A stretch of 24,854 nt of DNA from a virus. The stretch covers positions 1 through 24,854 of the IMG/VR virus record IMGVR_UViG_3300042345_000655; one strand, 5' to 3'. The position numbers were made by a program, and so were the translations under genes. The notes beneath the pieces were generated by a model. It was not told where the DNA came from. It worked only from the letters and a program-made list of their open reading frames with translations, and made no database searches. Below are positions 1 through 22,632 of the stretch, in pieces (the first letter of the stretch is position 1; the number at the start of each line of letters is the position of its first letter).

Positions 1-600
1 TTTACCGCTTCCTGGTCCACCAACAAGGAAAATTGCTTTATAACTTTCTTTTAGTTTACTCATGCCTGCTTTTACCTTGTCATGTATATGTGCGCCAAGT
101 TTCTTGTCGCTATATTTTGAAATAAATTCGTCTCTTTTTCCAGCAGCAACTAATGCTCGATGTTTAGAAGCAGATTCTCCTTCTTCTCCTTCTGAATCTG
201 GATCGCGATGACCTGCTGATTTGACTTCTATCTTTTTAATTTTTGGGAATTCTTTTGCACGATACTTGTTCAATAACTCTTGATATTCACCGACACGATC
301 CGAACCAGCATGAATCGTGACGTGAGTATGACCCTGCTTTTCCATATGCTGCATAGCATGAATGATGGTGCGGATCTTTGGGTGTGAAACGACGTTTGCC
401 TTCGGAAATAGTTTACGAAGTGCATGAACTTTATCCCCATGAGACAAGGGATTGCTACGGCTATCTTGCGTGTGGGTTGGGAAAATATAGTGTGTCCCGC
501 CTGTTTTTTCGGCGTGCTCCATCGCACCGTGGACGACTCTTCCGTGACCTTCTTCTGTTGGAGGGTTAAAACGACCCCATACTACTGTTGCTTTACTCAT
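1..600 (-). CDS. HIGH-type nucleotidyltransferase fused to P-loop domain (3' end outside window)
   Basis: Reading down from ATG at 600, the frame stays open to the window edge (200 codons). It begins MSKATVVWGRFNPPTEEGHG, where GRFNPPT..GH is the nucleotide-binding signature of the HIGH (NMN-adenylyltransferase/cytidylyltransferase-like) superfamily at residues 9-19. The usual form is PPTxGH, so TEEGH carries one extra residue. An FPTHTQDSRSNPLSHGDK stretch follows, typical of phage members. At the edge the same frame reaches AIFLVGGPGSGK, a Walker A P-loop, so a kinase/ATPase-like domain is fused C-terminally. NMNAT plus P-loop kinase is the architecture of NadR, so NAD salvage is one option; a nucleic-acid end-processing kinase is another. 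An internal ATG at 64 (MSKLKESYK) could also start the P-loop part separately. It follows the ligase-like gene by 26 nt, with an AATAAATA box overlapping that gene's stop. Confidence 0.75.
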   Translation of the reverse strand, partial: MSKATVVWGRFNPPTEEGHGRVVHGAMEHAEKTGGTHYIFPTHTQDSRSNPLSHGDKVHALRKLFPKANVVSHPKIRTIIHAMQHMEKQGHTHVTIHAGSDRVGEYQELLNKYRAKEFPKIKKIEVKSAGHRDPDSEGEEGESASKHRALVAAGKRDEFISKYSDKKLGAHIHDKVKAGMSKLKESYKAIFLVGGPGSGK

Positions 601-626
601 ATTTTTACCATCTGTTGGCAATAAGA

Positions 627-1796
627 TTATTTATTCTTCCTTCCTTTTAGAAGATTTTGTCGCGCGAACTCTTCGCGATCGACTAATTTTGTGGGGTGAC
701 CATTATGAACCATTACAAATCCCTCAGGCTTGGTAGCCTTACCTTCAATATGATGCTCAAATTCAGCGGAGGAAGATAACGTATTTACCAAAGCATTTTT
801 AGCCTTTTGAATGGCGTGGTGGATTTTAAATGCTTGAGATAGATGGCGATGATTGCGGTTTACGTCGTTATTGAATGCATTAAGGGCTTCGTGTTGCTTT
901 AATTTACCTTTTTGAGTCTTTTTCTTCTCAATTTCATTCTCGAAACGATTGGAAACAAAGGAACGATAACCCTCTACGCTCGGTTTAGTACCTTCTCGGA
1001 CAGTATGATTGATGTATCGATCTAGGTGCTCGCCGTGTGAACGAACCACGTGATACATCTCAGGATGAGACGCCTGATGATGGCGAACTGCGGCTTTGAG
1101 GTAAGTATCGAACTCTTTTTTATTCTTTTCGGAATGTTCCGCAGGTTTAACGCCTGGGTGAATTAGATGAACATCTGAATGAGAACCGAACTTATCGTGG
1201 TCGACGTCGAATCCAGCGGTCATATCGCTTAAATCCGATCCGTGGTATTTGGTATGAACGACCAAACCGATATGAGCCTTGGCTATCTTTTGACCGTGTT
1301 CTGAATCTGTAGGAGTAGAATAGGTGATCGTATTTGGAGTGAAATGATATTTTCCACCCTTTTTAGCCACGTCACCTTTGGTATACATTAGGTCGCCTTG
1401 ATAGACGCCGTGTTTTGGAGCAACTTTAGGGAGATGGCGTAGTGCGGTTTTGAGTTTTTCAACTAAACCTGGAGCGTGACCGTGGTTCTTTTCGATATCG
1501 GCTTCGGTATAATTAATTTTGGGGCTTTTGTTAAATGCAGACTTGCTGGCTACGAAAAACTTGCCCGTTTGTGGATGACGACCAAATACGAGCGAAGGAG
1601 ATCCGTCGTACTTGGTCGTCACTTTTGTTGTATTGAACGCACCGTGAAGTTTGTCGTTCACTGCCGAGAGAGCATCAACTGTGTGGTGAAATCCAGACTC
1701 ACCACCGTGAATAAAGTTATCTTCAGCGTGTGTTAAGTGTGTTAGATGCTTAACTGGTTCAATTTCTTCCGTTAGATAATTTCTAAAAGATAACAT
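627..1796 (-). CDS. Ligase/nucleotidyltransferase-superfamily-like protein with capsid-targeting-like N-terminus
   Basis: 389 aa, ATG at 1796. I see the ordered signature of covalent nucleotidyltransferases (DNA/RNA ligases, capping enzymes): motif I K62-Y-D64-G65, a motif III-like VYQGDLMY (131-138), a motif IIIa-like IGLVVHTKY (176-184), motif IV PEGFVMV (357-363) and a motif V-like TKLVDR (369-374). The gap between IIIa and IV is long and His/Lys-rich (about 185-350), which suggests an inserted helical domain. K62 would be the adenylylated lysine. The first ten residues, MLSFRNYLTE, match the T4 capsid-targeting peptide MKTYQEFIAE in the placement of aromatics (4, 7), the aliphatic (8) and E10, giving an LxE prohead-protease site. 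Inference: the protein is packaged in the head and may act on nucleic acid ends early in infection. It lies immediately upstream of the nucleotidyltransferase/P-loop fusion gene. Confidence 0.7.
   Translation of the reverse strand: MLSFRNYLTEEIEPVKHLTHLTHAEDNFIHGGESGFHHTVDALSAVNDKLHGAFNTTKVTTKYDGSPSLVFGRHPQTGKFFVASKSAFNKSPKINYTEADIEKNHGHAPGLVEKLKTALRHLPKVAPKHGVYQGDLMYTKGDVAKKGGKYHFTPNTITYSTPTDSEHGQKIAKAHIGLVVHTKYHGSDLSDMTAGFDVDHDKFGSHSDVHLIHPGVKPAEHSEKNKKEFDTYLKAAVRHHQASHPEMYHVVRSHGEHLDRYINHTVREGTKPSVEGYRSFVSNRFENEIEKKKTQKGKLKQHEALNAFNNDVNRNHRHLSQAFKIHHAIQKAKNALVNTLSSSAEFEHHIEGKATKPEGFVMVHNGHPTKLVDREEFARQNLLKGRKNK
628..635 (-). promoter_or_regulatory. AATAAATA late-promoter-like box
   Basis: AATAAATA overlaps the stop of the ligase-like gene and ends 27 nt before the ATG at 600. 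Confidence 0.4.
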
Positions 1797-1830: not shown

Positions 1831-1839
1831 TATATTTAG
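1831..1839 (-). promoter_or_regulatory. ACTAAATATA late-promoter-like box
   Basis: In the 54-nt gap before the ligase-like gene, 34 nt from its ATG; the same 10-mer ACTAAATATA occurs at 17693-17702. GGAGAGAG, a possible SD, lies between the box and the ATG. Confidence 0.35.
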
Positions 1840-1850
1840 TTTCTTTTAGA

Positions 1851-2627
1851 TTACTGCTTCATCTTAGCAATTGCTTCAGCTAATGCTTCACGCACTGGAC
1901 GCATTGCAGGATGGGCTGGAATTGTGCAGGTTGAACGCGAAGCCAACGTAGCAGCTTTGAATTCTTCCTCAGTAAACCACTGAACGTTCTCCAATCCCAT
2001 CAATTCAACGAGTTCATGCATATTGACCGAACCTTCGTTGACGAGATTTACAGGACCTGTTTCGCCCTTTTCGATAAGATCACAGGCAACGCGAACGGCT
2101 TCGTCGAGATCCGTAAGAGAGTTTTGACCTGAGTCAATCAACTTACCAGTCTTGGCATAGTTCATTACCTTTGTGAGATAATTCTTCTTTTCATTCAAAC
2201 CAGTGAATGGCATACGAATGCGAAACACAAGAGCACGATCCTTCAAGTAAAGATCTGAAACGCCCTTGGTAACGGAATAGATGCTACCGAAGTAATTTGG
2301 ATCTTCGTTTACATGAGTGATCTCGCCTTGGTAAATGCAACCGCTCGAGAAGTGAGCCAACTTTGTCCAGCCTCTGTTGCATGCATCAAGAAGTAGGGCT
2401 GGGAAAATGGCATTTGCTTCTGCCGTTTCTTCGCGTTGCAACTCACAAGCATCAACGTTTGGTGAACCAGTCATGCCTGCGCAATTTACCACCCACTGAT
2501 ACCCACCGTCAGTAGCCTCTTCAAGAGCATCTTCATGGCTACAATAAGTTACAATATGACCTCGTTTGACGAGTTCATTGAAAACTTTTTTACCTGTCCA
2601 TCCACGACCAACAACTAGAATTTTCAT
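1851..2627 (-). CDS. NAD(P)-dependent dTDP-sugar 3,5-epimerase/4-reductase-like protein (NRS/ER or RmlD type)
   Basis: 258 aa extended SDR protein. The start at ATG 2627 is preferred over a TTG at 2639, because GAGGTG lies just upstream of the ATG and the gene then begins MKILVVGRGWTGKKV with a Rossmann glycine motif. Catalytic YSVTK (YxxxK) lies near residue 139. The motifs GSPNVDACE, SSGCIYQG, FGSIYSVTK, FRIRMPF, NYLTKV and GPVNLVNEGSVNMHELVE match, as I know that family, the bifunctional nucleotide-rhamnose synthase/epimerase-reductase (NRS/ER) of plants and some large viruses more closely than bacterial RmlD. This would explain the absence of an rmlC gene: one enzyme could epimerise and reduce dTDP-4-keto-6-deoxyglucose to dTDP-L-rhamnose. 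It follows rmlA by 8 nt in the same operon. Confidence 0.8.
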   Translation of the reverse strand: MKILVVGRGWTGKKVFNELVKRGHIVTYCSHEDALEEATDGGYQWVVNCAGMTGSPNVDACELQREETAEANAIFPALLLDACNRGWTKLAHFSSGCIYQGEITHVNEDPNYFGSIYSVTKGVSDLYLKDRALVFRIRMPFTGLNEKKNYLTKVMNYAKTGKLIDSGQNSLTDLDEAVRVACDLIEKGETGPVNLVNEGSVNMHELVELMGLENVQWFTEEEFKAATLASRSTCTIPAHPAMRPVREALAEAIAKMKQ

Positions 2628-2635
2628 TTTACACC

Positions 2636-3514
2636 TCAACTATAACGACCCATAGATATGATTTTATCAAGATACTTACCATAATCAGATTTTGAATACT
2701 TCTTAGCGGCATTCGATAACTGATGTTGTGTAATCCAAGCATTACGATAAGCAATTTCCTCTGGGCATGCAATCATTGTGCCAGTTCTTCTTTGAACTGA
2801 ACCCACAAAGGTTGATGCTTCAGCAAGAGATTCAAAAGTGCCTGTATCAATCCAGGCAATACCACGATTTAAATATTCCACCTTACAGCTATGATCTTTC
2901 ATGTAGATATTGTTAATGTCGGTGATTTCAAGTTCACCACGAGCAGAAGGAGCAATTTGCCACGCATAATCTACGACGTTATTGTCGTAGAAATATAATC
3001 CTGTCACAGCATAGTTTGTTGGAGCAACTTTTGGTTTCTCAAGAATTGCAACTGGATCGCCGTGTTCGTTCACTTCAAGAACACCGAAACGTTCTGGATC
3101 CTGAACATGATAGGCGAACAAAGTGCAACCTTGATTGTTTTTGGCATAATTGAAGCGATTGATTAAATCATTTCCGTAGAAAATGTTATCGCCAAGAATC
3201 AAAGCAACTTCGTCTTTACCAATCCATTTCTCAGCAATACGAAAGCACTCAGCAATTCCTTTTGGCTCTAATTGAACTGCGTATGTAATGTTTAAACCCC
3301 ATTGCGACCCATCTTTGAGCAAACGTTTAAATTGCTCAGCATCATTGGGTGAATTGATGATCATAATATCGCGAATACCAGCAAGCATTAGCGTAGTGAG
3401 CGGATAGTAAACAAGTGGCTTGTCGTAAACAGGCAACAATTGCTTTGATGTCACTTCAGTGCATGGATACAAACGAGTGCCCATGCCACCAGATAAGATT
3501 ATTCCCTTTCTCAT
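2636..3514 (-). CDS. rmlA: Glucose-1-phosphate thymidylyltransferase
   Basis: 292 aa, the usual RmlA length. It makes dTDP-glucose from dTTP and glucose-1-phosphate. Visible motifs: the nucleotide-binding loop GGMGTRLYP (residues 9-17), SKQLLPVYDKPLVYYPL, the metal/sugar-site LGDNIFYG, ILEKPKVAPTNYAVTGLYFYD, ARGELEITDIN and AWIDTGTFESLAEAS. These cover the protein end to end, so it looks intact and functional. Its ATG overlaps the rmlB stop by 4 nt (ATGA), indicating translational coupling. It would pull on dTTP, which the phage-encoded dUTPase and dCMP deaminase help supply. Confidence 0.96.
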   Translation of the reverse strand: MRKGIILSGGMGTRLYPCTEVTSKQLLPVYDKPLVYYPLTTLMLAGIRDIMIINSPNDAEQFKRLLKDGSQWGLNITYAVQLEPKGIAECFRIAEKWIGKDEVALILGDNIFYGNDLINRFNYAKNNQGCTLFAYHVQDPERFGVLEVNEHGDPVAILEKPKVAPTNYAVTGLYFYDNNVVDYAWQIAPSARGELEITDINNIYMKDHSCKVEYLNRGIAWIDTGTFESLAEASTFVGSVQRRTGTMIACPEEIAYRNAWITQHQLSNAAKKYSKSDYGKYLDKIISMGRYS

Positions 3515-4458
3515 TTATACCACTCCAATGTTTTTTCAAGACCCACAATAATATCTGTTTTTGCTGACCAGCCAAGTTCCTTTTGAATCTTTTCAGCGTT
3601 CATTGCATATCTAAAGTCATGACCTTTACGATCACTCACAAAATTAATCCATGACTGATACATGTTGATTGGTTTGCCCATAATGTCAAGAATCATAGCA
3701 ACCATTTCAAGATTACTTACTTCGTGACCGCCACCAATATTATATCGCTCGCCAGATTTAAAGTTTTTACCAATCTCAAGTAAAGCCTCGCAATGATCTT
3801 CGACATATAACCAGTCACGAACGTTTTGACCTGTGCCATAAACAGGAACAGGCGTATTGTTTTTGATATGCCGAATTACAGTTGGGATAAACTTTTCTTT
3901 GTGTTGACGAGGACCATAATTGTTCGAGCAATTGGTCACAATTGCATCAATCTTATGAGTATTTACATAAGACCGAACAAGATGATCGCTGGCGGCTTTA
4001 GTTGCCGAATACGGATTGCGAGGATTGTATGGAGTTGTTTCCATAAATGGAGGATCTTCGCGAGTCAAACTACCATATACTTCGTCAGTTGAAATATGAA
4101 CGAGTTTACCGCCATATTTTTTGATGCACTTTAAAATGTTGTGAGTGCCATTAATATTAGTGCTGAGGAAAACATCGTCACCGTCAATAGAATTATCAAC
4201 GTGAGACTCAGCAGCAAAATGGTAAGTAATTTCTGGTTCATAACGATTGTACAGTAAATCTAGATTTTCATGATCTCTAATATCGACGTGTTTCAAAGAA
4301 ACACGCCAATCGTCCAAATATCCTTCTAGGTTTTTGACATCTGCTGCATAAGAGTTATTGTCAATAATAACAAGTTCGTCTGAGGGATATTTTTTAAGGT
4401 GAGCGATTACAAAATTAGAACCGATAAATCCCAAACCACCAGTCACAAATGTAGTCAT
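3511..4458 (-). CDS. rmlB: dTDP-glucose 4,6-dehydratase
   Basis: 315 aa extended SDR. It converts dTDP-glucose to dTDP-4-keto-6-deoxyglucose with bound NAD. The N-terminus has FVTGGLGFIGSNF (GxxGxxG). The family-specific HISTDEVYG carries the catalytic Asp/Glu pair, followed by NPYSATKAASDHLV (YxxxK), NNYGPRQHKEKFIP and RDWLYVEDHCEA. Length and motif order are normal. It is the first gene of the rmlB-rmlA-epimerase/reductase operon. RBS GAGG precedes the ATG, and a CATAAATA box lies 32 nt upstream inside the end of the preceding gene, suggesting late expression. Confidence 0.96.
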   Translation of the reverse strand: MTTFVTGGLGFIGSNFVIAHLKKYPSDELVIIDNNSYAADVKNLEGYLDDWRVSLKHVDIRDHENLDLLYNRYEPEITYHFAAESHVDNSIDGDDVFLSTNINGTHNILKCIKKYGGKLVHISTDEVYGSLTREDPPFMETTPYNPRNPYSATKAASDHLVRSYVNTHKIDAIVTNCSNNYGPRQHKEKFIPTVIRHIKNNTPVPVYGTGQNVRDWLYVEDHCEALLEIGKNFKSGERYNIGGGHEVSNLEMVAMILDIMGKPINMYQSWINFVSDRKGHDFRYAMNAEKIQKELGWSAKTDIIVGLEKTLEWYK

Positions 4459-4464
4459 AAAACC

Positions 4465-5376
4465 TCATCGTTCAACAATCACAACGTTTTTATTTATGCG
4501 CTTTTTATACGCAGCCAAAATTCTAATTCCTGGATATTCTTTTATACTCTTTCTCGTCTTATCATTACGAATAAAGAAGTATACATCTTTATCGCCTTTT
4601 ACATCTGTCATGTCAGTAATTACATGACTTACATCAATTACCAAATTTTCACCTTCTAATTTAAAGTCATCATTACTGAATGTCTTTGTGATCACAGCAC
4701 CATTTTGAGCAAGATCTGATCCGAATACAACATCGTTCTTTTCTTTGCGAGTTGATGTGACTGCAATATTAGGTTCAATTGTATAATAACTTCCTTGATT
4801 AATCAACTTTGTTTGCTCATTTTTTATTGCTTTATCAATAATTTTTTTGGCTTCTTCGCTAAAATATGAGTCCGCAGATTCCCAAGTTTCAGCATCATCT
4901 TTTTTGATTGATACAGGAAACTTCTGCATTCTTTTATTCATAAACATTACATCTGCTTTTTTTCTTCCTGCAGTGTCCGCACCAACGGAACCCACAGAAG
5001 TGCAAGATGGTATTTTAAAGGTTTTATTTTTTCCTTTGAATACAATATTCACACTGCCCATTTTCTTTATGGTCTTTTGAACCATATCAACTAGGAATTG
5101 TTCATTTCCAACTCCAGCAGAGGCACCTCCCTGCTTACCCGCAGGTTTTGCCAAAATCACAAATTTCCCGATCTTCACTTTACCGACAGAAGATTCAGAA
5201 GATGGGTTTTTATCGTAGTTACTTCCCTTTATGCTCTTATTTAAATTTTTAAGAACATCTATTCGATTTTCTTCCGTCAAAACCGCAATTTTGTTATTGC
5301 TAATTTTCTTAACATTTCTGTAACCAATAGAATTGACTAAAGCAATTACAGTTTCAATCGAAGTGATTTGCGGCAT
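4465..5376 (-). CDS. Unknown protein with PD-(D/E)xK nuclease-like residues
   Basis: 303 aa, not recognised as a named family. The middle of the protein has the layout of a PD-(D/E)xK nuclease core: a conserved-looking Glu in GVGNEQFLVDMVQ (E92), then KADVMF (D142), then FPVSIKKDDA with S156-I-K158 at strand spacing. Here the usual E/Q-x-K is S-x-K, as in some restriction-type and phage relatives. The C-terminal part is mixed alpha/beta and ends KKRINKNVVIVER. No signal peptide or membrane segment is visible. It lies 4 nt from the mini-metallopeptidase gene upstream and 6 nt from rmlB downstream. A role in DNA degradation, DNA end processing or recombination would fit but is inference; a non-catalytic structural protein cannot be excluded. 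Confidence 0.6.
   Translation of the reverse strand: MPQITSIETVIALVNSIGYRNVKKISNNKIAVLTEENRIDVLKNLNKSIKGSNYDKNPSSESSVGKVKIGKFVILAKPAGKQGGASAGVGNEQFLVDMVQKTIKKMGSVNIVFKGKNKTFKIPSCTSVGSVGADTAGRKKADVMFMNKRMQKFPVSIKKDDAETWESADSYFSEEAKKIIDKAIKNEQTKLINQGSYYTIEPNIAVTSTRKEKNDVVFGSDLAQNGAVITKTFSNDDFKLEGENLVIDVSHVITDMTDVKGDKDVYFFIRNDKTRKSIKEYPGIRILAAYKKRINKNVVIVER
4491..4498 (-). promoter_or_regulatory. CATAAATA late-promoter-like box before rmlB
   Basis: CATAAATA (one mismatch to TATAAATA) lies inside the last codons of the PD-(D/E)xK-like gene and ends 32 nt before the rmlB ATG. If used, it gives late expression of the nucleotide-sugar genes, in line with virion glycosylation. Confidence 0.45.
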
Positions 5377-5380
5377 CTAA

Positions 5381-5764
5381 TCACTCGTAGATTCTTGGAT
5401 TTTTTTTACCGTAGTTTCTCATAATAACTCCAGCAACACTATTTGCTTCGTTCTCAAATTCGCTACCAGTTTCACCAGCGTAGTTTGTTAACACACCATC
5501 TAGATTTTGTTTATGATGTACCATTTCATGGGCTAAAGTTCTAAGAACGTCAGCAGTATGTCTACCGCCTGTATTCAAATAGATCTTTTTCTCGCTCGGA
5601 GAATACCCACCAAAACTCTTATTTTCAGCAGCAATAGCCTTATCGGGAATTAGCACTAGTTCAGGCATTTCGCTTACGTTTAGATAATCTCTACAGTAAT
5701 CCATAAAGTCGTCAATGTGACTTTTTGTTTCCTGTTCTTTTAGGTATTGCTTGTACTTCAACAT
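5381..5764 (-). CDS. Mini-metallopeptidase-like protein (HExxH) with capsid-targeting-like N-terminus
   Basis: 127 aa. The sequence LRTLAHEMVHHKQNL contains HExxH (H79, E80, H83), and SEFENEANSVAG about 20 residues later supplies a plausible third Glu ligand (E104 or E106). This is the minimal gluzincin arrangement of a zinc peptidase. The N-terminus MLKYKQYLKE aligns with the T4 capsid-targeting peptide (aromatics at 4 and 7, L8, E10; LKE fits the (L/I)xE prohead-protease rule), so the protein may be packaged in the capsid. That N-terminus also supports ATG 5764 as the start even though the gene overlaps the upstream gene by 53 nt; AGAAGG lies about 12 nt upstream. The substrate is unknown: host envelope or a host defence protein are possibilities. 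Confidence 0.8.
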   Translation of the reverse strand: MLKYKQYLKEQETKSHIDDFMDYCRDYLNVSEMPELVLIPDKAIAAENKSFGGYSPSEKKIYLNTGGRHTADVLRTLAHEMVHHKQNLDGVLTNYAGETGSEFENEANSVAGVIMRNYGKKNPRIYE

Positions 5765-6371
5765 TGAGTTTGTAAACCTTCTTAAGAAACCGTTTCCATA
5801 TCTTCGGATCGGCTTTCCGAAAATGCAGTCGGTACATATAGATTGACTCGCATTCGGTCCAATTAATCTTATGTGCCTTACGAAGGTTATTTATATTCAG
5901 ATGCTCGGCTTGAGTCTCATAAGCGTGAGCATCAATCTCGTCTGGATTTCCATAGTACATCAACTTCATACGATCTTTTTTCTGCTTTGGCGTATACTGT
6001 TTAGTGTAAGAATAGCCTCGACCACGCTGTTGATGCTTATGGCGATACTCGTGGTGAATCGCTCGAACGACTTTTATCGCCAGATTCTTGGCTTCTTTTT
6101 CGGTAATGACCACCTTTTTATTCGCAACAGGAAAACTTAACGTAATCAATATGTTTTCAGGAATCGTCGAAAAGATTCGAGGACAATATTGCCCTGAAAC
6201 AATAACTGAGTGGTTTGGGAGATGGGCTTCATCGTAGCGCGAGGAAGTGAAATAAATGATAGACTTCTGAAACGTTTTATTCAGACTGCGAATGATAGCA
6301 GGTACAGACTTGACGCCCACCCAAGATGGGCTAATGGCGTCAACTTTTTTCTGTATCTTGTCTAATTTCAT
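5712..6371 (-). CDS. HExxH metallopeptidase-like protein
   Basis: 219 aa. VVRAIHHEYRHKHQQRG carries HExxH at residues 107-111, and NPDEIDAHAYETQAE (about 143-156) carries the glutamate (E145) and following acidic/aromatic residues expected of the third zinc ligand helix in mini-gluzincin or SprT-like proteins. The C-terminal half is strongly basic. I see no signal peptide and no capsid-targeting N-terminus (it starts MKLDKIQKKV), unlike its downstream neighbour. The start overlaps the gp41 stop by 4 nt (ATGA). The 3' end overlaps the next gene by 53 nt in another frame. Two HExxH proteins side by side suggest a related task, such as virion maturation or cell-envelope processing, but neither the substrate nor the activity can be read from sequence. 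Confidence 0.75.
   Translation of the reverse strand: MKLDKIQKKVDAISPSWVGVKSVPAIIRSLNKTFQKSIIYFTSSRYDEAHLPNHSVIVSGQYCPRIFSTIPENILITLSFPVANKKVVITEKEAKNLAIKVVRAIHHEYRHKHQQRGRGYSYTKQYTPKQKKDRMKLMYYGNPDEIDAHAYETQAEHLNINNLRKAHKINWTECESIYMYRLHFRKADPKIWKRFLKKVYKLNVEVQAIPKRTGNKKSH
5888..5895 (-). promoter_or_regulatory. TATAAATA late-promoter-like box inside a coding sequence
   Basis: An exact TATAAATA on the coding strand lies within the HExxH gene (codons for EHLNINNLR), 123 nt before the ATG at 5764. It matches the T4 late-promoter box. It could give the capsid-targeted mini-metallopeptidase its own late transcript, but chance occurrence in AT-rich coding DNA is a real alternative. Confidence 0.25.
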
Positions 6372-7753
6372 ACCTTAATGGCACTGAATTTATTCTTCGG
6401 TCTATCTCTATCCATTCCGCGATCTAACTCCTGCCCCGAATCAGCCAAGGTCGTTTGTGCGGCGGCTTCAACATCATAAAGTTTCATCTTGGAACGATCA
6501 ACGCCGATCACAAAACGCTTATTCATCGTTGGATCATTATATCTATTCTTCAACTGTTTCACCATAATGTGATTCAGTTTTTCGAGTTCCTCGGAAGTAA
6601 TTAGGGCAAACATAAAGTCAGCCGTTGCAGGCAAACCAAACGATTCAGAAGTATCCTCAAGACCAGGATCGGTATTGGTGAAACCTGAGCGAGTCGTTTG
6701 AGTGGCTGAAACAATCGGGACTTTAAACTCAACTGCAAGACCACGAATTTCTTCCGCAATCGCTTTGATATATGAATACGAGTTTACGTTCGCGCCGTGT
6801 TTCAAACGAGCCGACGCACATATATTCAGATAATCAATAAAGACGATATCGGGCTTAAAGTTTTTCTTGATGGCAAGTTCATTCAACAACGTTCGAAAGT
6901 GAATCGAACCTGCGGACGCAGTTGGATATTCTTTAATGATCAACTTACCTTTAATATTCTCTTTGATGCGAGAGATCTTTCTTTCATAAGTATCTTTCGG
7001 TAAGTTTGCAAGGTCATCCAACTTAACGTTCAAGAGATTCGCGTCAATACGTTCAGCAATCTTTTCTTCAGCCATTTCAAGAGTAATGTACAAGACGTTA
7101 TAGTTTTGACTCAACGCACCTGCCGCCACATGACACATGAATAGCGACTTACCAACGCCAGTTCCTGCCAACGCAACGTTTAGAGTTTTAGTCGGCAAAC
7201 CGCCTTTAGTGATACGATTGAAGAAGTCTAGATCGAAAGGGATGCGCTTTTCAACTTGATGATAGAAGTCAAATCGCTTAGAAGCATCTTCAATATAGTC
7301 GTGACCAATGTTAGGATCGAACGAAACTGAAAGCGCATCCGAAAGAATCTTCGGAATCGCACCTTTAGTCTTATCAGTCTTTTCATCTAGAATATGAATT
7401 GATTCTAGAATTGCATTATGAAGTGCTTTCTCTTGACAAAACTTTTCAGTCAACTCAAGAAGCCATTCCATCTTACTTGAGTCATCGCTGGACTTCAGCG
7501 ATTCAATCAATTCATTTGTCTGGCGAAAATCTTCTTCAAAGAGATTATCTCTCTGAGAAAGAGAGATGTTAATCGCTTCAAATGAAGGAACGTTATTATA
7601 TTTTAGAACATAACTTTGTACTTCTTCAAATACTATTTTTTCGACTCTTTCTTGGAAGTACTCGCTTTTTAGAAACGGAAGGGTCTTTCTTACGAACGGT
7701 TCGTTTTTGAACAGGTTCTTCAATATAATTTGCTCGATCTTCGTCAAACTCAT
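6368..7753 (-). CDS. 41: Replicative DNA helicase, DnaB-type (gp41)
   Basis: 461 aa, about the length of T4 gp41, the hexameric 5'-3' fork helicase that pairs with the primase. The N-terminal domain matches gp41 by pattern (PFLKSEYFQ, NVPSFEAINISL, GAIPKILSDALSVSFDPNIGHDY). The RecA-like domain has Walker A GTGVGKS (197-203), YITLEMAEEKIAERIDANLL, LLNELAIKKNFKPDIVFIDYL with Walker B, and AESFGLPATADFM-type helices near SFGLPATADFM. The start at 7753 fits the family alignment, even though the first 128 nt overlap the preceding gene in another frame. It is preceded by uvsX and a 171-aa protein, the T4 order uvsX-40-41 with an unrelated protein in the middle. Confidence 0.95.
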   Translation of the reverse strand: MSLTKIEQIILKNLFKNEPFVRKTLPFLKSEYFQERVEKIVFEEVQSYVLKYNNVPSFEAINISLSQRDNLFEEDFRQTNELIESLKSSDDSSKMEWLLELTEKFCQEKALHNAILESIHILDEKTDKTKGAIPKILSDALSVSFDPNIGHDYIEDASKRFDFYHQVEKRIPFDLDFFNRITKGGLPTKTLNVALAGTGVGKSLFMCHVAAGALSQNYNVLYITLEMAEEKIAERIDANLLNVKLDDLANLPKDTYERKISRIKENIKGKLIIKEYPTASAGSIHFRTLLNELAIKKNFKPDIVFIDYLNICASARLKHGANVNSYSYIKAIAEEIRGLAVEFKVPIVSATQTTRSGFTNTDPGLEDTSESFGLPATADFMFALITSEELEKLNHIMVKQLKNRYNDPTMNKRFVIGVDRSKMKLYDVEAAAQTTLADSGQELDRGMDRDRPKNKFSAIKV

Positions 7754-8141
7754 TTTCTGCTCCCTTCAACTCTTGTTCTAAAGAGTTAATTCTTTCATCC
7801 GCCGCTTTAATCGCATCTTCAAGAACAATCAATAGAATGTCACCAGCAATTCTATTAAAATCGCCCTTTAAAGTCAAATCGCCTTTCAGTTTACTCGGTT
7901 GCTTGATAACGTCAACATCAAAGTTTGCTTTTGCTGAACCATCACTCAGCGTTTCACCAATTTGAATTCTACCGATAGTGAAAATGACATCTTTATACTT
8001 TCCTTTTAAAAGACGAAAAGCAATTGATACATTATCGTTTTTATAAACGTCAGGCTCATGATAAATTTCATAATACTTACCTTTGCGATACTTGCGATCG
8101 CGATTCCACTTATGAAATTTGTCTAGGAAATTACTCATCAT
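7626..8141 (-). CDS. Unknown 171-aa protein between UvsX and gp41
   Basis: Starts MMSNFLDKFHKWNRDRKYRKG at tandem ATGs (8141/8138), overlapping the uvsX stop by 11 nt. The N-terminal two thirds look beta-rich (IAFRLLKGKYKDVIFTIGRIQIGETL) followed by a helix (DILLIVLEDAIKAADERINSLEQEL). The last 40 or so residues are Lys/Arg/Ser-rich and coded in the 128 nt that also encode the first 42 residues of gp41. The basic tail suggests a nucleic-acid contact. Its position is that of T4 gene 40, but there is no membrane segment and no resemblance to gp40. Related T4-like phages of aquatic bacteria also carry a small unknown gene here, as I recall. Function unknown; a replication accessory role is inference from position. 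Confidence 0.75.
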   Translation of the reverse strand: MMSNFLDKFHKWNRDRKYRKGKYYEIYHEPDVYKNDNVSIAFRLLKGKYKDVIFTIGRIQIGETLSDGSAKANFDVDVIKQPSKLKGDLTLKGDFNRIAGDILLIVLEDAIKAADERINSLEQELKGAENEFDEDRANYIEEPVQKRTVRKKDPSVSKKRVLPRKSRKNSI

Positions 8142-9195
8142 CTTCTACATCTCCTGCAGGAGTGGTATCTAGATTACCAGCAACAGCAGAACTGAATTGA
8201 TAGTTCTTACGAATCCATTCTTTGAATCCGTCATCCGCAAGAATGCTATCCCAGAATTCGGCACATTCAGTATCAGCCAAACGCCACTTCTTGGCTTCAA
8301 CTTCGCCAGTGGCGGTATTCACTTTTGCATACCAACCTACATTAGGCTTCGTAACATGACCAGACTCAAGTGCCATGTCAAGAAGACCACTGTACTTGCT
8401 AATGCCGCCATCGAAGCGAACTGTGACGGGGATCTTGGCTTTTTCACGAACATAGCGAGACTTCTCCACGTTGATGATAAAGTTATAACCAATCAAATCA
8501 GTACCTTCTTTTTCTTGCTGACGACCAAGGATGTAGATGTTATCAGCAGAGTAATAGGAACCTGTTCCGCCGCCGACAATATCCTTGGGATACAAACCTA
8601 TTTCTTTATAGGTGTGATTTACTACAACCATAGGAATGTCTTTTAAGGTGAGATGAGGTGTTACCATACGGAACAGGGATTTTATTTGCTTTGCGCGGCT
8701 CATGTCAGCGACTGACTTACCATCCAACGCATCCTCGACTTCTTTCTTCGAAGCCAAGTTACCAATTGAGTCAATGACGATCATTACACGCTCGCCACGC
8801 TCGATGTTAGTCAACTGTTGCATAATGTCAAACTTCAATTGCTCAACGTCCGTGATTGGAGTATGAACAACGCGATCGGTATCAATACCAAACGAAGTGA
8901 AATAGTTTTGTGGAGTACCAAACTCTGAGTCGTAGAACAATACAACTGCATCTGGATACTTAACCTGATATGCTTTCACCATCAAGAGACTGAACGCAGT
9001 CTTGAAGTGCTTTGACGGACCAGCCCACATCGTAAGACCAGGAGTGAAACCGCCATCAAGGTCGCCAGAGAAGGCAACGTTCACAACGGGAATGCTGGTT
9101 TGAATCATGTCCTTTGCGGCAAAGAACTTGGAACGAGCAAGAATTGCTGAATCCTTAATCGTGGAATTTTTCTTAATCTTATCAAGTAAACTCAT
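8131..9195 (-). CDS. uvsX: UvsX RecA-like recombinase
   Basis: 354 aa. It is the strand-exchange protein of T4-like recombination-dependent replication. The phage-type Walker A is AGPSKHFKT (58-66), with the GPSKHFK form specific to UvsX. FYDSEFGTP, MIVIDSIGNLASKKEVEDAL (Walker B region), VVVNHTYKEIGLYPKDIVGGGTGSYYSADNIYILG and the basic EKSRYVREKAKIPV follow in the expected order. The C-terminus is acidic (AGDVEDDE), as in RecA/UvsX tails. RBS AGGAG sits 6 nt before the ATG. It lies 9 nt downstream of gp43 and overlaps the next gene by 11 nt. Confidence 0.97.
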   Translation of the reverse strand: MSLLDKIKKNSTIKDSAILARSKFFAAKDMIQTSIPVVNVAFSGDLDGGFTPGLTMWAGPSKHFKTAFSLLMVKAYQVKYPDAVVLFYDSEFGTPQNYFTSFGIDTDRVVHTPITDVEQLKFDIMQQLTNIERGERVMIVIDSIGNLASKKEVEDALDGKSVADMSRAKQIKSLFRMVTPHLTLKDIPMVVVNHTYKEIGLYPKDIVGGGTGSYYSADNIYILGRQQEKEGTDLIGYNFIINVEKSRYVREKAKIPVTVRFDGGISKYSGLLDMALESGHVTKPNVGWYAKVNTATGEVEAKKWRLADTECAEFWDSILADDGFKEWIRKNYQFSSAVAGNLDTTPAGDVEDDE

Positions 9196-9204
9196 TTGTA
9201 TCTC

Positions 9205-11757
9205 CTATGAGAAAAAGTCATCTAGCGAATTAGTTTTCTCGCTCTTCCAGTTAATACTGTCAAGAACAATCGTCAACGGATCGAGAAACGCTTTCTCGAA
9301 TTGAGTATCATAATCTAAATATGGTCCCAAGTCAAATTCTTTCGGGATAGTTGTTAAGAACGATATGACGCTACATTGAAGTGGGTTTGGTTCCTTTACA
9401 TACAAGAACTTTATCTTTTCGCCTTCTTTGATTTCCTGATACTTCTTTTCAAGGTTCTTTGTACGGATCGCATTATTAAAAATAAGTGCACCCTTAACAT
9501 GAATTGGTGTACCTTTCGCATAAACACTATTCTTGTCAGCATATTCTCTTACTCCATTCACCGATCTCGGGAATGCAACATCTTCAACAGGTAATGTCTT
9601 AAACTCTTTGCGGAAGTTTGCAATAAACTGAATCAAGGTATCTTGATCTTTTGTGAGAATAACTTCAAACGCTTCCTTAATCTTTTCGCGGCAAGCATTC
9701 GGCGTTGAAGATTTAACCGCTTCAAGACCCATGATCTTAAGTTTCGGTTTCTTGTATTCAACACCTTCGTTATTATACACATTGATCAGATAACGCTTCT
9801 TTGCAGTCCAAATCGCTTTGTCAGCAAGAGCCTCGCGCTTCATCTTCATCTTCTGCGCATAAGCATTTACATACTCAGACAACTCCTGATATGATGCATC
9901 AATATATGGCTGCAGTTTCTGATCACAAAACTGATCCATTGCACGAATGATCTTTAACTTCTCAACCTTTTCGATGTTCGGTATAGACTTCTTGATAAGT
10001 GGTCCGAGATTCAAATAGATTGAATCGGTATCTGAAGCAATTACATAATCAGCATTTCGCGTTTTAACAATGCCGTTGATATAGGCATTAAGTTTATTTT
10101 CAATCCACCGAATAGATAACTGACCGCTGAGAGTGATCGCTTCAGCAATACGAATATCAAAGAAACGGAAGTATTGATTGCCGATAGCACCGTAAGCCGA
10201 GTTCAATGTTACTTTCTTAGCCAACTGAATGTTATTGAATTTAGCAATTTGCTTTTCGAGTTCTCGCTTTTCAGATTCTGAAACAGATTTCTCGAGTAAC
10301 TTCTTTGCTTCAGTCGCTTTGTTCTTGTACATGGCGCGATCTTCATACATACGCTCCATGATCTCGGACAAGAATCCTTGCTTGCTGATATCAAACAGTT
10401 GACCGTTTGGCGTTACCGTAACATTCAACTTCTTTAATTCTTCAGTTGGTATCTTACCATCAAGCAGTGAATCGACATTGATCTTACTACCCCATTGAGA
10501 CATAAACTTACGCATTTCATCCGTATAGTTTTTAGGTTCAATCAACATTTCAGGTGAAAGATTGTATTGCATGATCAAGTGCGGATACAGACTGTTCAAG
10601 TCAAACGAGGCAACCCACTCGTGCATACCAAGGATTGGATCTTTAACGAATGCGCCAGCATATTGACTATCCTTTTCTGCATTTCTGCGTGGAGGAATAA
10701 CCATATGCTTGGCTTTCAGAGTATTGTATGTGATTGTATCCCACATTCGTACTTGCGAGAACACATCATCATAATTTACTTTAGCGTCATACGCCAAAGT
10801 CATCGCAAGTTCAATCAGGCGAATTTTATCTTCGAGTTTCTGAACCAGCTCTACGTCGCGAATGTTATACTCAATAAACTTTTGATAATCAAGTCTATAG
10901 AGTTGATGTAGATTTTCATATTCAGAATAGTCTAACTTACGCTCGCCAAGTTCAACGCTACAGATATGATCTAGTTTGTATGACTCTTGATTTGGATTTG
11001 CTGAATACTTGCGATAGAGTTCGTAGTAGTCTAGAATTGAAATGCCATAAAGTTCATAGCAAGTTTGTTTCTTGCCACGAAAATTAATTTCACTCGAAGT
11101 GACTTTACCCCAGGGCGAAAGTTTCAATGCCTTGTCTTCACCAAACAAGCGAGTGATGCGGTTTACAAGATATGGAAAGTCGAAGAAACGAACGTTCCAA
11201 CCGCTGACAATATCAGGATAATATAAAGTCCACTTATCAATAAACTTTTCGATAAGTTCAAACTCATCCTGACACTTGATGTATTCAGTATTCTCGAAGG
11301 TGTTATTGAAGTCGCCACAACCGAAAACATAATTGCGACCACCCATACCGAGAGTGATGGCGGTGACTTCTTCAGTCGCCTTTGAAGGTTCAGGGAATCC
11401 GTTTTCAGATCCAACCTCAATGTCGATATATGCAACACATATCTGACTCAAGTCCCAATCAATTTCTTCTGGGAAGATGTCAGATATGAATGCATACTCA
11501 TAACGGTTTGAACCGTACACTTCAAAGTTGTTGACATCTTTAAATTCATCCATGAAGTTTCTTGCCTCACGAATGGATTTAAAGACCTTTTCTTCAACAT
11601 ACTCTTTATTCAGAGTTTGCCATTTAGTTGGAGTTGTGGATTTAACATAGAACTTTGGATTGTAATGAACCTTCTTGCGGAATCTCTTACCATCTTTAAT
11701 CCCGCGAAACAACACATTGTCACCAATAATGGTGACATTAGTGTAAAATGCACTCAT
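9205..11757 (-). CDS. 43: DNA polymerase, family B (gp43)
   Basis: 850 aa, slightly shorter than T4 gp43 (898), uninterrupted and in one piece. Exonuclease motifs: Exo I D112-I-E114, Exo II GWNVRFFDFPYL (about 186-197), Exo III YNIRDVEL (about 297-304). Polymerase motifs: A FDLNSLYP (385-392), B KKVTLNSAYGAIGNQ (514-528), C ASDTDSIY (574-581), with KKRYLINVYN and the thumb following. The C-terminus NSLDDFFS resembles the sliding-clamp (gp45) binding tail. So polymerase and 3'-5' proofreading functions both look intact. Its ATG overlaps the stop of the LSm-like gene by 4 nt. In T4, regA lies directly upstream; here regA is about 12.8 kb away. Confidence 0.98.
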   Translation of the reverse strand: MSAFYTNVTIIGDNVLFRGIKDGKRFRKKVHYNPKFYVKSTTPTKWQTLNKEYVEEKVFKSIREARNFMDEFKDVNNFEVYGSNRYEYAFISDIFPEEIDWDLSQICVAYIDIEVGSENGFPEPSKATEEVTAITLGMGGRNYVFGCGDFNNTFENTEYIKCQDEFELIEKFIDKWTLYYPDIVSGWNVRFFDFPYLVNRITRLFGEDKALKLSPWGKVTSSEINFRGKKQTCYELYGISILDYYELYRKYSANPNQESYKLDHICSVELGERKLDYSEYENLHQLYRLDYQKFIEYNIRDVELVQKLEDKIRLIELAMTLAYDAKVNYDDVFSQVRMWDTITYNTLKAKHMVIPPRRNAEKDSQYAGAFVKDPILGMHEWVASFDLNSLYPHLIMQYNLSPEMLIEPKNYTDEMRKFMSQWGSKINVDSLLDGKIPTEELKKLNVTVTPNGQLFDISKQGFLSEIMERMYEDRAMYKNKATEAKKLLEKSVSESEKRELEKQIAKFNNIQLAKKVTLNSAYGAIGNQYFRFFDIRIAEAITLSGQLSIRWIENKLNAYINGIVKTRNADYVIASDTDSIYLNLGPLIKKSIPNIEKVEKLKIIRAMDQFCDQKLQPYIDASYQELSEYVNAYAQKMKMKREALADKAIWTAKKRYLINVYNNEGVEYKKPKLKIMGLEAVKSSTPNACREKIKEAFEVILTKDQDTLIQFIANFRKEFKTLPVEDVAFPRSVNGVREYADKNSVYAKGTPIHVKGALIFNNAIRTKNLEKKYQEIKEGEKIKFLYVKEPNPLQCSVISFLTTIPKEFDLGPYLDYDTQFEKAFLDPLTIVLDSINWKSEKTNSLDDFFS

Positions 11758-20974: not shown

Positions 20975-21008
20975 AAAACCCTAATGAAATCAACAACTTA
21001 CATCAACG
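20975..21008 (-). repeat. 34-nt upstream element, copy 2
   Basis: On the plus strand it begins AAAACCCTAATGAAATCAAC and is 30/34 identical to 20633-20666. Its end overlaps the last codon and stop of the 2OG oxygenase gene. Confidence 0.75.
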
Positions 21009-21590
21009 CCAGGGAGGACCCTCGAACCAGCCAACAATGCTGTATCGTTTGCCTTTCGTGACTGGCTTGACGCCATGTAAAACAAATGATGGGAAACAAG
21101 TCATGACGCCCTGTTTTCGAACAACATCTTTTGGTGGATATTCTGGTATTTGATCAAATTCAAAGTCACCACCTTCATATGAGTTAGGATCTGACAGTTG
21201 AACAATCGCTGATATTTTTCTTTGCTGCCCTGGTTCGGAACTCAACGAGTTACCTTCAATCCAATCCAAATCCATATGAATTTTATATTCGCCTTGATAT
21301 TGTTCAGAATATTGAGTTAATTGCAACGGCGGTAAATCTGTAATGTGCGCCTTGAAATAATTGTTATTAATGTAACTAACATTTCTCCAATATCTTTCAT
21401 GTATGAAGCCCAACGTTGGATGGTCCGATTTAATCCAAAACACTTTACTTCTTCTGTGCTCAAAAACTTTTTTTAAATCGGGTGAACGACCAGTATAAGC
21501 CCAAGTTGGTGTTTCTTTTTGTACAGTTTGTATGATCCACTCACACTCTTCTGGAGTGAATGCTTGCGCGCATGCCCATAATGCTTTCAT
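21003..21590 (-). CDS. 2OG-Fe(II) oxygenase, tandem copy 2
   Basis: 195 aa. The iron ligands are H-x-D in EYKIHMDLDWIEG and the distal His in FPSFVLHGVKPVTKG; the 2OG Arg is in KRYSIVGWFEGPPW. LPPLQLTQYSEQYQGEY and GGDFEFDQIPEYPPKDVVRK are shared with its upstream neighbour (21587-22156), so the two are tandem paralogues. P4H/phytanoyl-type phage oxygenases of this size are common in aquatic T4-like phages; the substrate (protein, nucleotide or small molecule) is not known. ATG overlaps the neighbour's stop by 4 nt. It is the last gene before the early-promoter region. Confidence 0.9.
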   Translation of the reverse strand: MKALWACAQAFTPEECEWIIQTVQKETPTWAYTGRSPDLKKVFEHRRSKVFWIKSDHPTLGFIHERYWRNVSYINNNYFKAHITDLPPLQLTQYSEQYQGEYKIHMDLDWIEGNSLSSEPGQQRKISAIVQLSDPNSYEGGDFEFDQIPEYPPKDVVRKQGVMTCFPSFVLHGVKPVTKGKRYSIVGWFEGPPWR

Positions 21591-22156
21591 TGAAATTTAG
21601 GTCCTTCAAACCAACCAACTAAACTAAAGCGCACTCCTCGAGTCACAGGTCGCAAGGAATGATACACAAAAGAAGGAAATGCTATCACAGACCCTTGCTT
21701 TTGTATTACTTCTTGTGGAGGTTGTTCATTTAAATTATCAAAAACAAATTCGCCGCCATCATAATTTGATTTAGGAGAAAGTTGAGTCACAACGGAAACC
21801 TTACGATGTCTTGGTGTGTCAGTAATCCAAAAAACATCTTGATGGCTTTTATATTCACCGTTATCAGACCCATAGTATTCAGTAAATTGAATTGGTGGCA
21901 AATATGTGACATTGAAATTAAAAAAATCACGATTCACTCTCACCAACAATTTCCAATAGTCATCGAACAAAAAAGTAAAATCGGGATTTTCTTCACGAAT
22001 CCAACGCACTCTTGATCTTCGAAATGTTTTAGTTTTGTCGCCATCCATACCACCAACCGTAGGTTCTTCTGATGGTATCTTCATGGCGAGTTGAATTATT
22101 TTATCGCAAGTTTCTTTCGAGAAATAACTATCCCAAAATGCCCACTCACCCTTCAT
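21587..22156 (-). CDS. 2OG-Fe(II) oxygenase, tandem copy 1
   Basis: 189 aa from ATG 22156, chosen because GGAG lies 5 nt upstream, it overlaps the dCMP deaminase stop by 4 nt, and MKGEWAFWDSYFSKETC then lines up with MKALWACAQAFTPEEC of the paralogue; an ATG at 22180 is less likely. H-x-D is in EYKSHQDVFWITD, the distal His in FPSFVYHSLRPVTRG, and the 2OG Arg in VRFSLVGWFEGPKF. All catalytic residues are present in both copies, so both are probably active, perhaps on different substrates. Confidence 0.9.
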   Translation of the reverse strand: MKGEWAFWDSYFSKETCDKIIQLAMKIPSEEPTVGGMDGDKTKTFRRSRVRWIREENPDFTFLFDDYWKLLVRVNRDFFNFNVTYLPPIQFTEYYGSDNGEYKSHQDVFWITDTPRHRKVSVVTQLSPKSNYDGGEFVFDNLNEQPPQEVIQKQGSVIAFPSFVYHSLRPVTRGVRFSLVGWFEGPKFQ

Positions 22157-22632
22157 AGTAACTCCATTGGCATGTCCCAAACTCTAACTTTAACTCCCGC
22201 CTCGCGCAGCATTACTTCTGCATGCTCAATAGAGTAATGCTTTCCCGCACCCTTACCAGCAAATGGTCGGTTTGGTCCGATGACTTCCTTGATGCCTGCT
22301 TGAATCAATGCGCGTGTGCAATCAGCGCATGGCTTTGGTTCCCAATTTAGATATGCACGAGAATTGTTGAGCGAAACACCAACACGAGCAGCATTGAAGA
22401 TTGCATTGCGTTCAGCATGCTCAACCCAGTGATACTTTTCTGGCGCTTTCCAACGATCACTCCAATCTTCTTCGATTCCACGAGGGAATCCATTAAAACC
22501 CGTCGACAAGATGACGTTATCATCATTGACGATTATACACCCCACCTTTGTCGACGGGTCCTTGCTTTTCTGAGAGATCAGAGTAGCCTGTAAGATAAAC
22601 AATTCATCCCACGTTAATTCATCACGAATCAT
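22153..22632 (-). CDS. dCMP deaminase
   Basis: 159 aa. It deaminates dCMP to dUMP, the feed for thymidylate. Zinc site: H72-A-E74 in WVEHAERNAIFNAAR, and P101-C102-x-x-C105 in KPCADCTRALIQAG. KSKDPSTKVGCIIV and FNGFPRGIEE are family-typical. GAG 8 nt before the ATG. It lies just after hsp20 and near dUTPase, forming a small nucleotide-metabolism group that also supports dTTP for RmlA. Confidence 0.95.
   Translation of the reverse strand: MIRDELTWDELFILQATLISQKSKDPSTKVGCIIVNDDNVILSTGFNGFPRGIEEDWSDRWKAPEKYHWVEHAERNAIFNAARVGVSLNNSRAYLNWEPKPCADCTRALIQAGIKEVIGPNRPFAGKGAGKHYSIEHAEVMLREAGVKVRVWDMPMELL

What the first reader, a model, noticed from the sequence alone, without database searches (positions are those of the whole stretch)
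627..1796. Uncharacterised protein with the ordered motifs of the covalent nucleotidyltransferase/ligase fold
K62-x-D-G, a YQGD motif, an IGLVVHT strand, PEGFVMV and TKLVDR occur in the order I, III, IIIa, IV, V. An unusually long His/Lys-rich insert separates IIIa from IV. With the capsid-targeting start this would be a virion-delivered nucleic-acid ligase or adenylyl/guanylyl-transferring enzyme, which could pre-empt host tRNA- or DNA-cutting defences.
Basis: partly seen in the sequence, partly recalled or inferred. Interest (0 to 1): 0.75.

Follow-up and report, generated by a model that had tools for sequence, protein, structure and literature searches.

The report
Hidden ligase-fold enzyme in T4-like phages
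A protein of unknown function, carried by hundreds of T4-like water phages, is very probably a new branch of the enzyme family that joins broken RNA or DNA ends; it almost always sits beside an NAD-synthesis-like enzyme, and in this virus it carries a tag resembling the one T4 uses to pack proteins into its head.

Summary
The 389-aa ORF (complement 627-1796) is a member of DUF6267 (PF19782, E 9e-97), which has no assigned function. K62-x-D-G, D135, E358-G-x-V and K370 are kept in 275-276 of 276 distinct homologues, some only about 25-30% identical. AlphaFold2 models of the window protein (pLDDT 93.8) and of a short, divergent cyanophage orthologue (pLDDT 89.4) both give only RNA or DNA ligases among the 50 top structural matches, led by Naegleria RNA ligase (Z 8.9 and 8.8). 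Sequence-only searches do not reach ligases, so this is a new, divergent family of covalent nucleotidyltransferases, with a long helical insert and no recognised OB domain.

In 236 of 248 testable loci it lies near, or is fused to, an NMNAT-like HIGH nucleotidyltransferase. The window protein starts MLSFRNYLTE, matching T4 IPIII's capsid-targeting leader at the four mapped positions. Marine cyanophages carry this leader on the partner, which mass spectrometry finds in virions.

Most likely it is an ATP-dependent RNA-end ligase or adenylyltransferase. Seven complete DUF6267 genomes lack the four ligase families tested, but two other DUF6267 phages also have a DNA ligase, so it is not simply the missing replication ligase. 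Catalysis and substrate are untested.

The parts
627..1796 (-). DUF6267 protein, 389 aa: covalent nucleotidyltransferase (ligase-fold) enzyme
   Evidence: Pfam PF19782 E 9.2e-97; AF2 pLDDT 93.8, pTM 0.89; VIA top 50 all RNA/DNA ligases
1767..1796 (-). Capsid-targeting-like leader MLSFRNYLTE (residues 1-10), matching T4 IPIII MKTYQEFIAE at positions 4, 7, 8 and 10
   Evidence: residues 1-11 are the only stretch under pLDDT 50; CTS positions from PMC9026906
1602..1613 (-). Motif I K62-Y-D-G: predicted AMP-accepting lysine
   Evidence: 275/276 homologues; K62 ends strand 58-62 in the model
1539..1550 (-). Motif Ia ASKS (83-86), K85
   Evidence: K85 in 275/276; T4 Rnl1 (translated) has the similar SKG 20 residues after its KEDG lysine
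1392..1403 (-). Motif III YQGD (132-135), acid D135
   Evidence: Q133 and D135 in 275/276; aligned with ALQGEL of bacterial RNA ligases by hhalign, not significant by score
1251..1271 (-). Motif IIIa strand IGLVVHT (176-182)
   Evidence: H181 and Y184 in 276/276; strand 176-185 in the model
729..1241 (-). Insert between IIIa and IV (186-356); helices 223-341
   Evidence: shorter in S-RIM2-type orthologues
714..728 (-). Motif IV PEGFV (357-361)
   Evidence: E358, G359, V361 in 276/276
675..692 (-). Motif V TKLVDR (369-374), K370
   Evidence: K370 and R374 in 276/276
1..621 (-). Partner: NMNAT-like HIGH nucleotidyltransferase (GRFNPPTEEGH, SASK.R) followed by a P-loop kinase; cut by the window end, 491 aa in L004
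   Evidence: such a gene is adjacent, nearby or fused in 236/248 testable loci
1833..1840 (-). ACTAAATA, one mismatch from the NATAAATA late-promoter pattern (recalled consensus), about 40 nt upstream of the start
   Evidence: exact ATAAATA within 120 nt upstream in 16/80 freshwater-type loci against 3.7% of background windows
6368..11757 (-). Context: replication genes gp43 (9205-11757), UvsX (8131-9195), gp41 (6368-7753) read before DUF6267
   Evidence: identified by eye from the sequence; same gene order annotated in S-PM2 and P-RSM6

Best explanation
The protein is a divergent covalent nucleotidyltransferase of the DNA/RNA ligase superfamily, nearest in fold to stand-alone RNA ligases. It most likely works by the ligase route: K62 attacks ATP to form a lysyl-AMP; D135, E358 and K370 hold the nucleotide and metal; the AMP is passed to a 5'-phosphate end, probably of RNA such as cut tRNA, and the break is then sealed. 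The helical insert, in place of an OB or C-terminal domain, would grip the substrate or the partner. It acts together with an NMNAT-like nucleotidyltransferase and, in some lineages, a P-loop kinase, as a two- or three-enzyme module. In this phage group the leader probably packs it into the head so that it enters the host with the DNA. Shown by computation: fold, motif conservation, gene partnership, leader pattern. Inferred: AMP as the nucleotide, RNA as the substrate, packaging, repair role. Rough confidence: superfamily 0.9, active nucleotidyltransferase 0.8, RNA-end ligase 0.45, packaged in this phage 0.6.
For: AF2 models of two divergent orthologues both return only ligases in the 50 best VIA rows, NgrRnl first: Z 8.9, 184 aa, 3.7 A and Z 8.8, 176 aa, 3.8 A. 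RNA ligases (NgrRnl, Trl1, Rnl2, KREL1, Rnl1, archaeal Rnl) mostly rank above DNA ligases in both. The aligned range ends at 382 opposite NgrRnl 338, which places K370 near NgrRnl K326 and E358 near E312. Catalytic positions are kept in 275-276 of 276 homologues. The order of strands and motifs fits the ligase core: K62 ends a strand, D135 and H181 lie in strands, IV-V form a hairpin. A partner gene is present in 236/248 loci, 22 of them fusions. CTS-like start in 124/1189 ORFs against 0/5967 internal Met. Late-promoter-like sites are enriched upstream. DUF6267 coexists with a DNA ligase in DLP6 and XG4, which favours a different substrate.
Against: No sequence method links it to ligases: hmmsearch against PDB sequences finds none, and hhalign against ligase profiles stays at probability 3% or less, though it also failed for Rnl1 against Rnl2. 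Foldseek E-values against PDB are above 0.1, and VIA Z of 8-9 is only slightly above the 7-8 seen for unmatched models. The second model's alignment contained some long forms too, so the two models are not fully independent. Motif III has Asp for Glu. XG4 also has an Rnl1-type RNA ligase, so an RNA-sealing role would be shared there. In S-SZBM1 virions the partner was detected but DUF6267 was not, although that DUF6267 lacks the leader.
Confidence: 0.5

Rival explanations
1. It is the missing replication DNA ligase of T4-like cyanophages: a distant, non-orthologous stand-in for gp30 that seals Okazaki fragments.
For: Seven complete DUF6267 genomes (S-PM2, P-RSM6, C48C1, HTVC008M, Melnitz-3, S-RIM2, P-SSM3) and four long contigs have no PF01068, PF01653, PF09414 or PF09511 match, while T4 rings for three of the four. 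The gene lies among gp43, uvsX, gp41 and gp61. PMC2984593 leaves open whether cyanomyoviruses have unrecognised distant homologues of g30.
Against: Stenotrophomonas phage DLP6 and Pseudoalteromonas phage XG4 carry both DUF6267 and a DNA ligase. No OB fold was recognised. Host ligase can substitute for g30 (PMC2984593). A head-packaging leader is not expected of a replisome enzyme.
Confidence: 0.15
2. It is an adenylyl-transfer enzyme of NAD or nucleotide metabolism: with its NMNAT-like partner it makes, recycles or attaches NAD-type adenylates, for example against NAD-depleting defences, rather than joining polynucleotide ends.
For: The nearly universal partner is closest to NMNAT/NadR models (TIGR00482 E 8e-6, TIGR01526 1e-4). 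Such partners are found in virions (PMC3037559, PMC9146016, PMC9602691). Phage NAD+ reconstitution pathways are known (PMC12774641, abstract). Several top Foldseek rows are NAD+-dependent ligases.
Against: The partner scores far below the NMNAT cut-offs, so its substrate is unknown. No ligase-superfamily enzyme known to me makes NAD as its main job. VIA ranks RNA ligases first, not NAD+-dependent DNA ligases.
Confidence: 0.2
3. It is a scaffold or nucleic-acid-binding head protein that kept the fold but not catalysis.
For: CTS-like leader, basic protein (net charge +12), a weak hit to a phage structural family, PF11681 (E 1e-3).
Against: All catalytic motif residues are kept over 276 sequences including short forms, which is not expected without catalysis. 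Marine forms lack the leader.
Confidence: 0.08

Closest known systems
Naegleria gruberi RNA ligase (NgrRnl; I recall it as the Rnl5 clade)
   Same: Best fold match in both models (Z 8.9 and 8.8, 3.7-3.8 A, 176-184 aa); KxDG and EGxV motifs; chain ends soon after motif V.
   Different: As I recall, NgrRnl has an N-terminal OB domain and motif III Glu; DUF6267 shows neither, but has a long helical IIIa-IV insert, a leader and an NMNAT-like partner. Sequence identity about 11-12%.
T4 RNA ligase 1 (gp63, Rnl1)
   Same: Fold match (Z about 7.0-7.1); motif Ia with SK (SKG) like DUF6267 [AS]SK; phage RNA-sealing enzyme.
   Different: Not detectable by sequence; Rnl1 has its own C-terminal domain; Pseudoalteromonas phage XG4 has both families.
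T4 RNA ligase 2 and trypanosome RNA-editing ligase KREL1
   Same: Fold match Z about 7.2-7.3 with the nucleotidyltransferase domain alone.
   Different: No C-terminal domain in DUF6267; Asp instead of Glu in motif III.
T4 internal protein IPIII (capsid-targeting sequence)
   Same: Leader M..[FY]..[FY][LI].E at the same spacing.
   Different: The mature parts are unrelated; packaging of DUF6267 has not been measured.
NadR / NMNAT (partner gene)
   Same: HIGH nucleotidyltransferase followed by a P-loop kinase, as I recall for NadR.
   Different: Below NMNAT/NadR family cut-offs; kinase closest to Zeta_toxin/AAA_33 and PSTK.

Membership tests
DUF6267 (PF19782) | Profile match above the curated cut-off over the whole domain | tested here: met
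   325 bits against a cut-off of 27, profile 2-373 of 376
Covalent nucleotidyltransferase (DNA/RNA ligase) superfamily | Ordered motifs I (KxDG), III, IIIa, IV (EGxV), V (K), conserved in homologues | tested here: met
   275-276 of 276 at K62, D64, G65, D135, E358, G359, V361, K370; motif III acid is Asp, not Glu
Covalent nucleotidyltransferase (DNA/RNA ligase) superfamily | Ligase core fold | tested here: met
   VIA top 50 rows all ligases for models of two divergent orthologues; Foldseek E-values alone not significant
Covalent nucleotidyltransferase (DNA/RNA ligase) superfamily | Sequence-profile relationship to known members | tested here: inconclusive
   hmmsearch against PDB sequences no ligase; hhalign probability 3% or less, motifs aligned in register in places
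Covalent nucleotidyltransferase (DNA/RNA ligase) superfamily | Covalent lysyl-NMP intermediate | not testable with these tools
   needs auto-adenylylation assay with K62 mutant
T4 Rnl1 family (PF09511) | Profile match above the cut-off | tested here: not met
   2 of 66 members match, best E 0.11
RNA_ligase family (PF09414) | Profile match above the cut-off | tested here: not met
   not in the window protein's Pfam list; no match in DUF6267 genomes
ATP-dependent DNA ligase (PF01068) | Profile match above the cut-off | tested here: not met
   not in the window protein's Pfam list; no match in 11 DUF6267 genomes or contigs, T4 positive
ATP-dependent DNA ligase (PF01068) | C-terminal OB domain with motif VI | tested here: inconclusive
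   chain ends 19 residues after K370 in one helix; no OB domain could be placed, but no domain-level fold search was run
T4-type capsid-targeting sequence | Aromatic/hydrophobic residues at 4 and 7, L/I at 8, E at 10 | tested here: met
   F4 Y7 L8 E10; IPIII Y4 F7 I8 E10
T4-type capsid-targeting sequence | Protein present and processed in virions | not testable with these tools
   no proteome found for a phage with a leader-bearing DUF6267; the leader-bearing partner is in S-SZBM1 virions

The most novel reading that the evidence does not exclude
DUF6267 and its NMNAT-like partner form a new injected repair module: a ligase class of its own, carried in the phage head by a T4-style leader placed on one or the other partner, that re-seals host-cut RNA (or restores adenylated cofactors) from the first minute of infection, in phages that otherwise have no recognised ligase.
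Probability: 0.2. Interest if true: 0.85.

Novelty: new variant of a known kind. Interest (0 to 1): 0.62.

Why it matters
DUF6267 occurs in 471 of the phage records searched, mostly T4-like cyanophages, and in many environmental viral contigs, yet it has no function in Pfam or PHROGs, no NCBIfam model, and no paper in the library names it. A ligase-fold assignment turns a hypothetical protein of very abundant marine phages into a testable enzyme. It also bears on a question raised in 2010, whether cyanomyoviruses have unrecognised ligase homologues. The leader moving between two partner genes gives a simple, checkable rule for which proteins these phages inject.

Tried and rejected
(1) Profile-profile comparison with ligase families: not significant, so not used as proof. 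The best local alignments put motifs I, Ia and III, or IV-V, in register, but shuffled controls reach similar scores for Rnl5, Rnl1 and LigD; only the RnlA set beat all 60 shuffles, over 15-20 columns. (2) hmmsearch of the 66-member profile against PDB sequences: only chance hits. (3) Simple replacement of DNA ligase: weakened by DLP6 and XG4, which have both. (4) S-CREM2 was looked at as a virion test, but its cytidylyltransferase is not beside a DUF6267-sized gene, so it was not counted for the pair. (5) KPP10_Orf10 Pfam hit (E 1e-3, 2 of 66 members): below cut-off, not pursued. (6) Cellular origin: the 41 loci from bacterial and archaeal genomes are nearly all contigs in metagenome bins from very different phyla; I read them as phage contigs by titles only. 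(7) Guanylyltransferase (capping) reading: not separately testable; capping enzymes appear only in weak Foldseek rows.

Full report
WHAT IS THERE. The window is a 24,854-base IMG/VR viral fragment with T4-type replication genes on the minus strand: gp43, UvsX and gp41, recognised by eye and by the same annotated gene order in cyanophages. The finding is the ORF complement(627..1796), 389 aa. It matches Pfam DUF6267 (E 9.2e-97) and PHROG 455 (E 1.8e-98), both of unknown function; NCBIfam has nothing and no paper in the library contains the word DUF6267. In the annotated phage collection 471 records carry a relative, mostly Synechococcus and Prochlorococcus phages plus Methylophilales, Pelagibacter, Vibrio, Pseudoalteromonas and Stenotrophomonas phages.

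MOTIFS. In an alignment of 276 distinct homologues, K62, D64, G65 and D135 are kept in 275, and E358, G359, V361, K370, H181 and Y184 in all 276. K85 in a motif-Ia-like [AS]SK is kept in 275. Only 33 of 389 positions reach 97% conservation.

FOLD. AlphaFold2 on a 66-sequence alignment gave pLDDT 93.8 and pTM 0.89; only the leader (1-11) is below 50. VIA-align 2 on Foldseek's 1000 best PDB chains gave 50 of 50 top rows from the ligase superfamily: Naegleria gruberi RNA ligase Z 8.9 (184 residues, 3.7 A), then Trl1 7.4, T4 Rnl2 7.3, KREL1 7.2, T4 Rnl1 7.1, archaeal RNA ligases 6.5, DNA ligases about 6.3. A second prediction with a short orthologue as query (298 aa, pLDDT 89.4) gave the same answer: NgrRnl Z 8.8, and again only ligases in the 50 rows. 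The second alignment shared some long forms with the first, so the two models are not fully independent. The Z values alone are modest, as the tool's note warns, and Foldseek E-values are not significant. What persuades is that models of two divergent sequences rank nothing else, that RNA ligases lead in both, and that the aligned ends put K370 near NgrRnl K326 and E358 near E312, the residues whose mutants are named in the PDB titles. The models' secondary structure fits: K62 ends a strand, D135 and H181 lie in strands, motifs IV and V form a hairpin. I could not inspect coordinates, so the active-site superposition is inferred.

SEQUENCE LINK. No sequence method finds ligases significantly. 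With the shallow ligase profiles I could build, hhalign also missed Rnl1 against Rnl2, so this is weak evidence either way. In one unsupported but telling alignment, KYDG, FFVASKS and VYQGDLM fall opposite KLDG, FGVCSRN and ALQGELI of bacterial RNA ligases.

PARTNER. In 248 testable loci DUF6267 is followed within 4.5 kb by (214, most of them adjacent) or fused to (22) a protein with a GRFNPPxxGH motif; 12 lack it nearby. Its best models are NMNAT and NadR (TIGR00482 E 8.1e-6, TIGR01526 1.2e-4), all below cut-off. In freshwater types, and in HTVC008M as a separate gene, a P-loop kinase of the Zeta_toxin/AAA_33 kind accompanies it; the nearest solved structure is L-seryl-tRNA(Sec) kinase at E 0.003. 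In the window this partner begins at 621 and is cut by the window end; the complete 491-aa form is in L004. The function of the pair is inferred, not shown.

LEADER. The N-terminus MLSFRNYLTE fits the T4 capsid-targeting sequence. IPIII reads MKTYQEFIAE; PMC9026906 reports that residues 4 and 7 matter most for targeting and 8 and 10 for processing. In freshwater-type DUF6267 the consensus is F4, F/Y7, L/I8, E10. The pattern M..[FY]..[FY][LIV].E starts 124 of 1189 ORFs in related loci but occurs at 0 of 5967 internal Met codons; many of the 124 are the same family, so the number of independent events is smaller. Marine cyanophage DUF6267 lacks it, and there the partner has it in all 40 distinct cases where it could be read. 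This agrees with published virion proteomics: in S-SZBM1 the partner (SSZBM1_140, MRFRQFIIEA...) was detected and DUF6267 (SSZBM1_141) is not in the table; T4-GC190, the cytidylyltransferase cluster, was found in S-SM1 virions (PMC3037559); NMNAT-like proteins are reported in S-SCSM1 and S-CBWM1 virions (PMC9602691). So packaging of the window protein is a fair inference, not a measurement. Late-promoter-like ATAAATA sites are enriched upstream in freshwater and Melnitz-type loci (16/80 and 14/53 against about 3-4% of background windows); in the window the site is one mismatch off.

WHICH LIGASE JOB. Seven complete DUF6267 phage genomes and four long contigs have no match to the four ligase families tested; T4 rings for three of them. 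PMC2984593 says homologues of g30 and rnh are not found in cyanomyoviruses (RNase H in S-PM2 excepted), so either unidentified distant homologues exist or the genes are absent; it prefers the latter. DUF6267 could be such an enzyme. Against this, DLP6 and XG4 carry DUF6267 together with a DNA ligase, and XG4 also an Rnl1-type ligase. No OB domain was recognised, and the fold ranks RNA ligases first. I therefore favour an RNA-end (or related 5'-phosphate) adenylyltransferase/ligase over a replisome DNA ligase, and keep an NAD- or nucleotide-metabolism role open because of the partner.

CONCLUSION. Defence evasion is untested. DUF6267 should be described as a new family within the covalent nucleotidyltransferase superfamily, not as a member of Rnl1, Rnl2 or DNA ligase families, whose profile tests it fails.

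Noticed in passing
window 5381-5764 (-): 127-aa HExxH metallopeptidase-like protein with a capsid-targeting-like leader (MLKYKQYLKE); its family starts this way in 11 ORFs of the related loci.
   Followed up: partly
L067:7504-8124 (+): HAD-like hydrolase with the same leader (MKSFKDYLIEE), near DUF6267 and the nucleotidyltransferase; 8 related ORFs. With the P-loop kinase this recalls an end-healing set.
   Followed up: partly
L031:7983-9762 (S-PM2 AJ630128): S-PM2 DUF6267-nucleotidyltransferase appears as two CDS in AJ630128, but as one 591-aa protein in the viral structure library (A0A0M6VVW4) and one place in LN828717: probably a frameshift in the old record.
   Followed up: no
window 1851-4458 (-): Genes that look like dTDP-rhamnose synthesis (RmlB, RmlA, RmlD types, by eye) lie between the replication genes and DUF6267.
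   Followed up: no
window 4465-5376 (-): 303-aa protein of PHROG 12709, unknown function.
   Followed up: no
window 24600-24854 (-): C-terminal part of a RegA-type translational regulator (PF01818, E 1.5e-15), cut by the window end.
   Followed up: no
L004:7651-9726 (+): Next gene downstream carries DUF5824 (PF19141), which in other phages is fused to the nucleotidyltransferase.
   Followed up: no
window 21003-22180 (-): Two adjacent similar genes that look like 2OG-Fe(II) oxygenases (by eye).
   Followed up: no
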